From contig NZ_QKNW01000001.1 in the NCBI RefSeq assembly GCF_009663395.1, positions 930,001 to 994,000 on the forward strand: a stretch of DNA of 64,000 nucleotides. Direction: 5' to 3'. Positions 7,495-52,723 of this stretch are shown one piece after another (within the stretch, counting starts at the first letter, position 1; each line of letters begins with the position of its first letter). The notes beneath the pieces are model-generated. The model searched no databases. It was not told where the DNA came from and saw only the letters and a program-made list of their open reading frames with translations. The position numbers were made by a program, and so were the translations under genes. Source of the stretch: Halosegnis longus (GTDB lineage: Archaea; Halobacteriota; Halobacteria; Halobacteriales; Haloarculaceae).

Positions 7495-8190
7495 ATGCGA
7501 CGGTCCACGCTTGCCCTCCTTGCACTCCTGTTCGGTATCGTACTCGCCGCGAGCGCCGCCAGCGGCGCACCGCCACCCGTCGACGTGTGTGGGGTCTGCG
7601 GACTGGCCGACGATGAGGGGTATCCGCCCGACCAGCCCGACGCGACGATAGTGGAGAGTTCACTTACGATTACCATCGCCGAGGACGGCACGACCCGGTG
7701 GGTGGAGACGGCGACCGTCGGCGAGGAGACGGCGCGACGACTCCGGACGGACGAGTCGTACCGCGAGCGCGTCGCCGAAAGCGAGCGCATCGTCACGCGG
7801 CCACGGAACCTGACGGCGACGCTCGACGGACAGCAGTTCACCGTGCGCTACGGCGGCCAACGGCCGGCAACGCAGCGAGTCGGCGGCGTCGTGGTGTTCG
7901 ACTTCGACCAGTCGAGCTACCGCCCCTCGATCGGGGAGTACGCGGTGACGGTTCGAGGGCCGGGCGAGACGGTACCGCGGCGCGTTCCGGGCAACGGCGA
8001 GCGCGCGAACGGGACCGCACGCTGGCCGGCGGCGGCGACCGACGGCTTCGGACGAACGCGGGTCGTCTTCGGTCCGTCGGGGCCGGTCGGGGCGGTGCTC
8101 GGCTACGTCGTCGGGCGACCGCTGCGCGTGGTCGCCGGCGGACTCCTCGTCGCCGCGATACTCGCCGGTGGGCGGCGAGTCAGCAGGTGA
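7495..8190 (+). CDS. Secreted, C-terminally membrane-anchored protein of unknown function
   Basis: 231 residues. Residues 1-24 are a signal peptide (RR then a hydrophobic run ending ASG) and residues about 203-226 a hydrophobic anchor followed by RRVSR. The outer segment has a CGVCG motif near residue 32 and beta-rich sequence ending in an FGPSG turn before the anchor. I do not recognise a catalytic motif. This architecture is common among uncharacterised haloarchaeal surface proteins. It follows serA by 36 bases on the same strand and converges on thrC with a 13-base gap. Confidence 0.65.
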   Translation: MRRSTLALLALLFGIVLAASAASGAPPPVDVCGVCGLADDEGYPPDQPDATIVESSLTITIAEDGTTRWVETATVGEETARRLRTDESYRERVAESERIVTRPRNLTATLDGQQFTVRYGGQRPATQRVGGVVVFDFDQSSYRPSIGEYAVTVRGPGETVPRRVPGNGERANGTARWPAAATDGFGRTRVVFGPSGPVGAVLGYVVGRPLRVVAGGLLVAAILAGGRRVSR

Positions 8191-8203
8191 AGAGAGAAAC
8201 AGC

Positions 8204-9511
8204 CTACAGCAGACGACGGAGCAGGCCGAGCAGGCCGCTCCCGCCGATGGATTTGCCGGCGAGGTGTCGGAGGATGTCGTCGGTGTCGTTCGGGACGCCC
8301 TCGGGCGCGTTGCCGGCAGCGGCGGCGGCGTCGGGGTCCTTCAGCAGGTGGCCGGTCGTGAGACAGACCACGTCCTCGCCGGTAGAGACCTCGCCGCTGG
8401 CGACGAGTTTGCGGAGCCCGGCGACGCTTGCCGCGCTCGCCGGTTCGACGCCGATACCCTCGCCGGCGAGGTCGCGCTGTGCCTCGGTGATCTCCTCGTC
8501 GGAGACGGCGACGGCCGTGCCGCCCGTCTCGCGGATGCCGGGGAGCGCCTTCGGCGCGTTGACGGGGTTGCCGATGCGGATGGCCGTCGCGATGGTCTCG
8601 ACCTCCTCCCAGCGGCGGGTCTCGTCGTTCCCCTCGCGAATCGCCTCCACCATCGGCGCGGCACCCTCGGCCTGCACGCCCGTCAGCTTCGGCACGTCGC
8701 CGGGAGCGAGCGCCCCCGACTGGACGAGTTCGCGGAAACACTTGTACAGCGCAGCGGTGTTGCCCGCGTTGCCGACGGGGAGGACGATGCGGTCCGGAAA
8801 CCGACCCTCCTCGTTGCGGAACCGTTCGAGGATTTCGAGCCCGATGGTCTTCTGCCCCTCCAGTCGGTACGGGTTCAGGGAGTTCAGGAGATACGCCTCG
8901 CCGCGGTTGGCGAGGTCCTGCACGCGGTCGAGACAGTCGTCGAAGTTCCCCTCGACCTCGAGGATGCGCGCGCCGTGGAGACTCGCCTGTGCAATCTTCC
9001 CGGCGGCGACCTTCCCCTCGGGGAGGAGGACGAGCGTTTCGAGTCCGGCGCGGGCACCGTAGGCCGCGAGCGCGGCCGAGGTGTTGCCGGTCGAGGCGCA
9101 GGCGAGTCGGTCCACGTCGAGTTCCTGTGCGACCCGGACGCCGACGGTCATTCCTCTGTCCTTGAACGAGCCGGTCGGGTTCATCCCCTCGTGTTTGACC
9201 CGAAGATTCCGGACGCCGAGGTCCGCTTCCAGTCGCGGCACCTCGTGGAGCTGGGTGCCGCCCTCGGGGAGCGAGACCCCAGCCTCGAACGGGAGCGCGG
9301 CGCTGTAGCGCCAAACGCGCTCGTCGCCGGCGAAGTCGTCGAAGGTCGGATACTCGGCGTAGCGAACCTCAAGCAGGCCGTCACACTCCGGACAGGTGAA
9401 GACCACATCGTCGAACGGCGGCAGGGTGTGCGAACACTCGATGCAGTGGAGCCACACGTCGTCGGCTCCTTCGGGCGGCGTAGGGTGGTCGGGCAGCGTC
9501 AGGTCGGCCAT
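8204..9511 (-). CDS. thrC: Threonine synthase
   Basis: 435-residue PLP enzyme converting O-phosphohomoserine to threonine. An N-terminal zinc ribbon is formed by Cys23/Cys26 and Cys40/Cys43. The PLP Lys117 sits in GSFKDRG, followed by ASTGNTSAA, and the phosphate-binding segment PVGNAGN lies near residue 239. Homoserine dehydrogenase is at 54518-55465. No homoserine kinase is visible in the window. The start ATG at 9511 is 16 codons before the first ribbon strand. Confidence 0.95.
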   Translation of the reverse strand: MADLTLPDHPTPPEGADDVWLHCIECSHTLPPFDDVVFTCPECDGLLEVRYAEYPTFDDFAGDERVWRYSAALPFEAGVSLPEGGTQLHEVPRLEADLGVRNLRVKHEGMNPTGSFKDRGMTVGVRVAQELDVDRLACASTGNTSAALAAYGARAGLETLVLLPEGKVAAGKIAQASLHGARILEVEGNFDDCLDRVQDLANRGEAYLLNSLNPYRLEGQKTIGLEILERFRNEEGRFPDRIVLPVGNAGNTAALYKCFRELVQSGALAPGDVPKLTGVQAEGAAPMVEAIREGNDETRRWEEVETIATAIRIGNPVNAPKALPGIRETGGTAVAVSDEEITEAQRDLAGEGIGVEPASAASVAGLRKLVASGEVSTGEDVVCLTTGHLLKDPDAAAAAGNAPEGVPNDTDDILRHLAGKSIGGSGLLGLLRRLL

Positions 9512-9557
9512 GCTCCATGTGTGCGGTCACGGCACAAATAGCGGGCGGTCGCGACAG

Positions 9558-9914
9558 TTACTCCTCGGCGGCCAGATGCGTCTCGCCCCACTCGCGCATC
9601 GACTCGATGACGGGTTCGAGCGAGGCTCCCCGCTCGGTGACGGAGTACTCGACGCGGAACGGCTTCTCGCTGACGACCTCGCGAGCCACGAGCCCGTGGT
9701 CTTCGAGCTGTTCGAGCGAGTCCGACAACACCTTCGAGGAGATGCCGTCGACGGCCCGCTGGAGGTCGTTGAAGCCCCGCTCCTCGGCGATGAGCCGGTG
9801 GATGATGACTGGGTGCCACTTCTTGCCGAGGATGGTCGCGGTCGCGGTGATGGGACACCACTCCTCGCCGGCACACCACACTTCGAGTCGGTCGTCGGTG
9901 TCGTCGGCAGACAT
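9558..9914 (-). CDS. HxlR-family winged-helix regulator
   Basis: 118 residues with the HxlR signature: an N-terminal Cys-containing stretch (Cys14, Cys20), the helix ILGKKWHPVIIHRL, the recognition region GISSKVLSDSLEQLEDHGLV and the wing VEYSVTERG. HxlR proteins bind DNA as dimers and often use the N-terminal Cys to sense electrophiles or redox stress. It is monocistronic between thrC and a TrmB-type gene, and its target is unknown. The quinone-type detoxification genes at 45-47.7 kb are only a speculative candidate regulon. Confidence 0.88.
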   Translation of the reverse strand: MSADDTDDRLEVWCAGEEWCPITATATILGKKWHPVIIHRLIAEERGFNDLQRAVDGISSKVLSDSLEQLEDHGLVAREVVSEKPFRVEYSVTERGASLEPVIESMREWGETHLAAEE

Positions 9915-9961
9915 ACGTCACCATTCGACCGACCGCAGAAAGGGTTACCGTTAGAAAGTAC

Positions 9962-10339
9962 TCAGCGGCCGAACTCGTCGATGCGGTCGTGGACGTACGC
10001 GGTCCACTCGTCGAGCGTCTCGTGCATCAGTTCACGCGCCTCGGAGACGGGGGTTGCGGTGTACTGGTAGACGTGTCCGCCGGAGTCGAGCAGTTCGCGC
10101 CGGCGCGTCGCGAGTCCCTTCTCGCGGAGCGTGGACAGCGACCGGTTCACGTTCGAGCGGTCGCGGTTGAGCCGCTCGGCGAGCCCGGCCACGGTGGTGT
10201 TCGGCTCGTCTAACAGCGTCAGATACGTTCGTACCTCGATATCTTGCATCCCGAAGACGCACGCGAGGACGTCCTCGAACCCCGGCTCTGAATCGAGCAT
10301 CAGTTCGCGGAACCGACTCGGGTCCGGATCACTCTGCAT
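9962..10339 (-). CDS. TrmB-type helix-turn-helix regulator
   Basis: 125 residues from the ATG at 10339; another ATG at 10366 would add nine residues. Residues about 28-90 form a winged helix typical of TrmB-like proteins: FGMQDIEVRTYLTLL, then AGLAERLNRDRSNVNRSLSTL and a wing rich in Arg. The C-terminal helix HETLDEWTAYVHDRIDEF may dimerise. It lacks the large sugar-binding domain of full TrmB. It is divergent from a membrane protein gene, with a 49-bp dyad between them, so autoregulation plus control of the neighbour is likely. Confidence 0.85.
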   Translation of the reverse strand: MQSDPDPSRFRELMLDSEPGFEDVLACVFGMQDIEVRTYLTLLDEPNTTVAGLAERLNRDRSNVNRSLSTLREKGLATRRRELLDSGGHVYQYTATPVSEARELMHETLDEWTAYVHDRIDEFGR

Positions 10340-52430: not shown

Positions 52431-52493
52431 ACGCGTTGTAGGCGCGGACGACAAATAAACACAGGCCGGAGCGGCAGCTCAGAGTTGAAAAAC

Positions 52494-52516
52494 ATGGACG
52501 AGCGGGGATTTGAACC
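52494..52516 (-). repeat. Exact 23-bp copy of the tRNA-Ala 3' end
   Basis: Identical to 52651-52673, covering the T-arm half, acceptor 3' strand, discriminator base and one flanking base of tRNA-Ala(CGC). It lies in the same orientation, so the two form a 157-bp-spaced direct repeat. Such pairs flank tRNA-integrated elements (attL/attR), but no integrase lies between. Confidence 0.85.
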
Positions 52517-52580
52517 GGAACCAGACGTGCTCGCTCACTCCGTTCGCTGCGCGCGACTGGTAGGGTTCAAATCCACTCGT
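52498..52580. repeat. 83-bp imperfect palindrome built from tRNA-Ala T-arm sequence
   Basis: ACGAG and GATTTGAACC (52498-52502, 52507-52516) are mirrored by GGTTCAAATC and CTCGT (52564-52573, 52576-52580). An inner ACCAG/CTGGT pair extends the stem. The loop is about 33 bases. It looks like an inverted duplication of a tRNA end. Confidence 0.75.
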
Positions 52581-52651
52581 GGCTCGTGTGTGCGCTCGAG
52601 GCGGCTTGCTCGCTCGCGTCGCTCGTCGCGTGGTGCTGTGAAAAGCTTCGA

Positions 52652-52723
52652 TGGACGAGCGGGGATTTGAACCCCGGGCCTCTTCCTTGCGAAGGAAGCG
52701 ATCTGCCGCTGATCTACTCGCCC
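52652..52723 (-). tRNA. tRNA-Ala (anticodon CGC)
   Basis: 72 bases with the complete cloverleaf: acceptor GGGCGAG/CTCGTCC (one G-U pair), D stem GATC/GATC, anticodon stem CTTCC/GGAAG with loop TTCGCAA, T arm CGGGG-TTCAAAT-CCCCG and discriminator A. It reads GCG codons. CCA is not encoded and no intron is present. It is 102 bases downstream of rps10 on the same strand. Confidence 0.95.

What the first reader, a model, noticed from the sequence alone, without database searches (positions are those of the whole stretch)
52494..52723. Duplicate and inverted copies of the tRNA-Ala 3' end next to the gene
A 23-bp exact copy of the tRNA-Ala(CGC) 3' half lies 157 bp away in direct orientation, and a third, diverged copy is inverted beside it, so that the pair forms an 83-bp imperfect palindrome. 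Direct repeats of tRNA ends are att-site scars of integrated elements. The inverted copy is not explained by simple integration and may show repeated rearrangement, or a small hairpin element that grew from a tRNA end. There is no integrase in the window.
Basis: seen in the sequence. Interest (0 to 1): 0.6.

Follow-up and report, generated by a model that had tools for sequence, protein, structure and literature searches.

The report
Mobile hairpin cassettes at tRNA ends
The palindrome beside this tRNA gene is one copy of a very common but apparently undescribed family of tiny gene-less DNA units in salt-loving archaea, which sit exactly at the 3' ends of tRNA genes, rebuild that end with a copy of it, and come and go between related species.

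Summary
In the window, a 157-bp unit (52495-52651) follows tRNA-Ala(CGC). Read in tRNA sense it is: variable module B, an inverted copy of the tRNA T-arm (T'), a hairpin core (A), and an exact copy (T) of the tRNA's last 22 nt. The same T'-A-T hairpin occurs in 189 of 194 Halobacteria genomes sampled (up to 24 scored copies each) and in none of the sampled non-halobacterial Halobacteriota. It lies almost always 40-300 bp downstream of a tRNA gene, in one orientation, and its T matches that particular tRNA (26 isoacceptors seen). Across 168 units T is 89-99% identical to the tRNA at all 22 positions and stops sharply at both ends. T' is conserved only over the T-arm (~11 nt). Units form tandem arrays of 1-4, swap B and A modules, and differ in presence between congeners; clean empty/filled pairs place the junction exactly at the tRNA 3' end. 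Stem pairs covary while an internal A.A mismatch is kept. Best reading: gene-less integrative cassettes recombining at the tRNA T-loop through a folded hairpin, attC-like. The mobilising enzyme is unknown. The ordinary att-scar reading is not sufficient.

The parts
52652..52723 (-). tRNA-Ala(CGC) gene, the target; its last 22 nt are 52652-52673
   Evidence: ARAGORN, Rfam RF00005 66.5 bits
52495..52651 (-). complete unit (157 bp) in tRNA sense: module B, T', core A, T
   Evidence: repeat spacing; unit anatomy from 168 units; empty/filled pairs at another tRNA locus
52495..52516 (-). T: exact 22-nt copy of the tRNA-Ala 3' end (T-stem/T-loop to discriminator base)
52563..52574 (-). T': inverted copy of the T-arm (GGATTTGAACCC in tRNA sense)
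   Evidence: inverted repeat I1; per-position conservation
52506..52574 (-). hairpin A (T'-core-T), the conserved part; covariance model R1 scores it 100 bits
52517..52562 (-). core of hairpin A with asymmetric internal loop and a conserved A.A mismatch in the stem
52575..52651 (-). module B, exchangeable between units: 77 bp here and alike in G002, replaced by a different hairpin module in G003 and G005
52485..52493 (-). T-rich stretch right after the distal T copy
   Evidence: sequence

Best explanation
This is a gene-less integrative cassette of tRNA genes. SHOWN: each unit (in tRNA sense B-T'-A-T, median 131 bp) lies exactly at the 3' end of a tRNA gene and ends with a copy of that tRNA's own 3' end. 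Units stand alone or in tandem, exchange modules, and are present or absent at the same tRNA in closely related genomes with precise junctions. INFERRED: a unit moves as a circle, or is copied, by site-specific recombination between the 7-bp T-loop of the tRNA gene and the T-loop copy in its hairpin. The inverted T-arm and the mismatch-bearing stem make a folded single-strand site, as in integron attC. Every insertion replaces the tRNA's 3' end with the unit's copy, so only units with a perfect copy leave a working tRNA; this would explain why T is exact while the rest diverges. Loss can occur by the reverse reaction or by ordinary recombination between the 22-bp repeats. The recombinase would act in trans and is not identified.
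For: Class-wide family: 189/194 Halobacteria genomes, none outside them in the phylum sample. Position: in the own genome the 7 best hits are all 37-75 bp downstream of a tRNA and strand-consistent; 38/40 census loci; 103/126 exact-motif copies within 400 bp of a same-sense tRNA 3' end, and several of the 12 exceptions inspected keep a remnant of a tRNA end. T copies are 22/22 in 113 of 190 and bounded sharply at the T-loop 5' side and at the discriminator; T' is conserved only over the T-arm. Empty/filled pairs: a 112-bp A unit in L186 against L202 with the next 122 bp 96.7% identical, and a 65-bp C-type unit in L188 against L187 with 852 bp of flank 93.7% identical. Tandem arrays and module shuffling. 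Stem covariation 34 double-change cells against 7 in shuffles; A.A mismatch kept in 90/115 while neighbouring pairs hold in 112-116 of 116 copies, two of them with several pair types each. Cores are shared between different tRNAs of one genus as often as between the same tRNA in different genera.
Against: No circle, no expression and no enzyme was seen. All units examined lack genes. The 5 genomes without copies also carry tyrosine recombinases, so no correlation points to an enzyme. Empty/filled pairs would also arise from deletion between 22-bp repeats. attC's GTTRRRY motif is not matched (T-loop is GTTCRAA). T-arm covariation could partly come from quasi-palindrome templated mutation.
Confidence: 0.5

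Rival explanations
1. Cis-acting RNA element: the unit is a structured 3' trailer of the pre-tRNA (terminator, processing signal or small RNA), kept by selection on the RNA, with tandem copies made by local duplication.
For: Same-strand position just after tRNAs, compensatory stem changes, T-rich stretch after the T copy.
Against: Presence and type change quickly among congeners at the same tRNA, and only some tRNAs have it (8 of 42 here). The acceptor part of T, exact in most units, has no pairing partner in module B (5.12 against 5.00 +/- 0.07), so an RNA role does not explain its exactness. No Rfam family matches the unit.
Confidence: 0.2
2. Passive repeats: the family arose long ago and is now moved only by homologous recombination and gene conversion between T copies and between tRNA loci, with no dedicated recombinase.
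For: 22-bp repeats suffice for precise loss; module shuffling between arrays; no enzyme identified.
Against: Spread to tRNAs with different acceptor sequences, each with its own exact 22-nt end and matching inverted T-arm, is hard to get by homologous exchange; T' is not homogenised beyond the T-arm.
Confidence: 0.2
3. Att-site scars or deletion derivatives of ordinary tRNA-integrated elements.
For: Copy of a tRNA 3' end in direct orientation; integrase islands do target the same tRNAs (L153).
Against: Conserved core and constant anatomy across the class; the real island has a 49-bp att repeat from the anticodon arm and lies proximal to pre-existing units, which it pushed away.
Confidence: 0.05
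4. IS200/IS605-derived palindromic element (PATE-like), moved as single-stranded DNA by a Y1 transposase.
For: Two palindromes per unit, no target duplication; PATEs are described in Haloquadratum walsbyi (PMC3119063).
Against: The own genome and G125 (22 copies) have no Y1_Tnp gene, while G066 without copies has 10 hits. A 22-nt copy of the target is far longer than an IS605 target or guide sequence (own knowledge).
Confidence: 0.05

Closest known systems
Integron cassette arrays / CALINs (attC sites)
   Same: Tandem short units behind a fixed anchor; imperfect hairpin with inverted core sites at its foot and conserved unpaired bases; unit gain, loss and shuffling
   Different: Anchor is a tRNA gene, units have no genes, no IntI found, core is the tRNA T-loop and not GTTRRRY
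tRNA-integrated elements and CIMEs (cis-mobilisable elements with att sites but no integrase)
   Same: Insertion at the tRNA 3' end, which is restored by a copy carried by the element; no own integrase; tandem accretion
   Different: About 105-210 bp (5th-95th percentile), gene-less, obligatory inverted T-arm hairpin, one conserved core for all tRNA species
PATEs and SMRs of Haloquadratum walsbyi (PMC3119063)
   Same: Short transposase-less palindromic repeats in haloarchaea without target duplication
   Different: Those target other mobile elements or carry IS605-like ends; in the passages read no tie to tRNA 3' ends is described
E. coli tyrT 178-bp repeats / rtT RNA (own knowledge)
   Same: Tandem repeats behind a tRNA gene, each carrying a short copy of the tRNA 3' end
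   Different: No inverted T-arm hairpin known to me, and not a dispersed family over many tRNAs

Membership tests
tRNA-integrated element using a tyrosine recombinase | Direct repeat of the tRNA 3' end at the far end of the element | tested here: met
   22-nt T copies in 168 units, sharp borders
tRNA-integrated element using a tyrosine recombinase | Empty site in relatives with the junction at the tRNA | tested here: met
   L187/L188 and L202/L186, for the tRNA-Gly(ccc) locus; no alignable empty site for the window's own locus
tRNA-integrated element using a tyrosine recombinase | Integrase carried by the element or shown to act on it | tested here: not met
   Units are about 105-210 bp and gene-less; no integrase hit in the window; action in trans untested
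Integron cassette array | attC with inverted R''/R' core sites and unpaired bases | tested here: inconclusive
   Inverted T-arm sites and conserved A.A mismatch, but the core is GTTCRAA and not GTTRRRY
Integron cassette array | IntI integrase and gene-bearing cassettes | tested here: not met
   No genes in units; no integrase beside the window array
IS200/IS605-type PATE or REP | Y1 (TnpA/RAYT) transposase in the genome | tested here: not met
   No Y1_Tnp in G000 or in G125, which has 22 copies
MITE | Terminal inverted repeats shared with a transposon, usually target duplication | not tested
   The inverted T-arms are not at the two ends of the unit; no parent transposon was sought
tRNA-like RNA element (t-element) | tRNA-like fold with acceptor and T-arm | tested here: not met
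   No Rfam tRNA match in the unit; no 5' partner for the acceptor strand across units

The most novel reading that the evidence does not exclude
A categorically new, class-wide system of gene-less cassettes in Halobacteria that uses the tRNA T-loop as its insertion site and a folded T-arm hairpin as its recombination site. Arrays read T-B-T'-A-T-B-T'-A-T, the pattern expected from copying a small dumbbell circle whose stem is the tRNA 3' end.
Probability: 0.3. Interest if true: 0.88.

Novelty: new variant of a known kind. Interest (0 to 1): 0.74.

Why it matters
A repeat family present in nearly all Halobacteria, with up to 24 or more copies per genome, appears not to have been described (no paper found among those searchable here). 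It gives a natural case of tRNA genes being repeatedly rebuilt at their 3' ends by tiny units, and a possible archaeal parallel to integron folding-based recombination without genes or an adjacent integrase. The prediction is directly testable in Haloferax or Halorubrum, and the family could explain part of the hypervariable DNA behind haloarchaeal tRNA genes.

Tried and rejected
Simple pattern search of the own genome for the palindrome found only the window copy, because other copies differ in sequence; a covariance model was needed. Phage records: no match. Viral contigs: one exact motif hit, in a coding region without palindrome or tRNA, judged chance. Plasmids: four hits; the two examined lie beside or among tRNA genes. 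IS605 mobilisation: rejected as general explanation. tRNA-mimic RNA: no own-acceptor complementarity. Bacterial occurrence: one Bacteroidetes MAG contig (L286) whose ORFs look like an archaeal-bacterial chimera, judged by eye only. An enzyme correlation with the 5 copy-free genomes gave nothing for PF00589. Literature searches found no description, but subscription papers are not held.

Full report
WHAT IS IN THE WINDOW. The 23-bp repeat, the inverted copy and the palindrome are all present at the stated coordinates, next to tRNA-Ala(CGC) at 52652-52723 on the minus strand. The tRNA is followed, on the same strand, by a 157-bp unit (52495-52651). The gene upstream of the tRNA is ribosomal protein S10, then EF-1A. 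In tRNA sense the unit reads B (77 bp) - T' (inverted T-arm, GGATTTGAACCC) - core of hairpin A - T (GGTTCAAATCCCCGCTCGTCCA, identical to the last 22 nt of the tRNA). The hairpin folds far better than shuffles as RNA (z -5.3) and as DNA (z -4.1 and -4.8).

IT IS A FAMILY. A BLAST of the locus against 59 relatives returned many partial hits to the palindrome alone. Extracting them showed one consensus, GGATTTGAACCGGAANCAGACGTGCTCGCTC...GCGCGACTGGTAGGGTTCAAATCC, and nearly every copy lay downstream of a tRNA, next to a copy of that tRNA's own 3' end. A covariance model built from 28 copies finds it in 189 of 194 Halobacteria genomes, up to 24 copies each; at most 25 candidates were scored per genome, so counts are lower bounds. 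In the phylum sample it is found in 31 genomes, all Halobacteria, and in none outside them.

IT BELONGS TO tRNA ENDS. In the own genome the seven best model hits all lie 37-75 bp downstream of a tRNA on the matching strand, and 8 of 42 tRNAs carry a copy of their own tail downstream, against none upstream or antisense. Of 40 further loci chosen from the census at moderate scores, 38 lie downstream of a tRNA. Of 126 exact-motif copies, 103 are within 400 bp of a same-sense tRNA 3' end; among the 12 exceptions inspected, several keep a remnant of a tRNA 3' end, as expected if a larger insertion separated them from the gene, while others show no clear remnant. One such case is clear: an 8.2-kb island in G037 with a broken integrase gene sits between an intact tRNA-Gly and a truncated tRNA-Gly followed by units; its own att repeat is 49 bp and starts in the anticodon arm. 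The integrase call rests on its position and a readable tyrosine-recombinase-like C-terminal motif; Pfam and PHROGs gave no match to the N-terminal ORF.

ANATOMY AND LIMITS. In 168 units the T copy agrees with the tRNA at 89-99% at each of 22 positions; 113 of all 190 copies are 22/22. Agreement falls to about 0.1-0.5 directly 5' of the T-loop stem and to about 0.6, then 0.4, directly 3' of the discriminator. T' agrees over the T-arm (11-12 nt) and is at random level beyond it. This is the border expected if the crossover lies in the 7-bp T-loop and the tRNA end must be restored. Stem pairs covary (34 double-change cells against 7 expected; the covarying stem keeps pairing through up to four pair types), while the A.A mismatch is retained in 90 of 115 copies and unpaired in 103. 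The alignment used for the second count was fitted to the model, so it leans towards the structure.

DYNAMICS. Arrays of up to four units occur (tRNA-Asp, Phe, Leu). Orthologous tRNA-Asp arrays of two species hold the same B and A modules in different combinations (L154 and L164). At tRNA-Gly(ccc) in one genus, presence, number and type of unit differ widely. Two pairs show precise junctions: a 112-bp A unit (L186 against L202, next 122 bp 96.7% identical) and a 65-bp second type that duplicates and inverts only the last ~12 nt of the tRNA (L188 against L187, 852 bp of flank 93.7% identical). At the window's own locus, G000 and G002 share module B, G003 and G005 have another B with the same A, and G004 has no unit; its flank cannot be aligned to the window's, so no clean empty site is available there. 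Core similarity does not follow tRNA identity: 17% of same-genus, different-tRNA pairs and 15% of different-genus, same-tRNA pairs reach 85% identity.

MECHANISM. The best-supported reading is a gene-less integrative cassette that recombines at the tRNA T-loop through a folded hairpin site. Shown: position, borders, presence/absence, module exchange, structure conservation. Inferred: site-specific recombination, the hairpin as recombination site, an enzyme in trans. Tyrosine recombinases are present in all genomes tested with or without copies. Y1 transposases are absent from the own genome and from a 22-copy genome, against IS200/IS605. Homologous recombination between the 22-bp repeats explains losses and part of the shuffling, but not easily the colonisation of tRNAs with different acceptor ends. 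An RNA role in the pre-tRNA trailer remains possible.

KNOWN SYSTEMS. Archaeal integration into tRNA genes is well known, and the review of archaeal tyrosine recombinases (PMC8371274) describes the anticodon-arm site; H. walsbyi has PATEs, SMRs and MITEs (PMC3119063). In the passages read, neither describes a tRNA-end hairpin unit. The parallels with integron attC arrays, CIMEs and the E. coli tyrT repeats are from my own knowledge. Novelty is therefore stated as a new variant of a known kind, with the open possibility of something more distinct.

Noticed in passing
L187/L188, L153 8300-8720 and L201: A second unit type (about 65 bp) that carries an inverted and a direct copy of only the last ~12 nt of the tRNA, often alternating with the T-arm type in the same array.
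   Followed up: partly
L245 (Haloarcula halophila plasmid NZ_CP119561.1, about 7700-10200 of the locus): A plasmid array of 20 or more packed tRNA genes near a TROVE-domain protein; one unit lies inside what looks like a tRNA-Cys, between its variable region and T-arm.
   Followed up: no
L153 (G037:C1:113000-132000): 8.2-kb island in tRNA-Gly(TCC) with a 49-bp att repeat, an apparently frameshifted integrase and a large ORF that reads like a DNA methylase/restriction protein; it displaced a pre-existing unit array.
   Followed up: partly
L231 (G060:C1:1221364-1221428) and integrase at G060:C1:1220286-1220840: Orphan unit about 0.5 kb from an integrase gene, with a 13-nt tRNA-end remnant: probably the edge of a large island.
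   Followed up: no
L286 (PXTT01000074.1): A contig labelled Bacteroidetes begins with archaeal-looking DNA including a tRNA and a unit, then bacterial-looking genes: probably a chimeric metagenome contig.
   Followed up: partly
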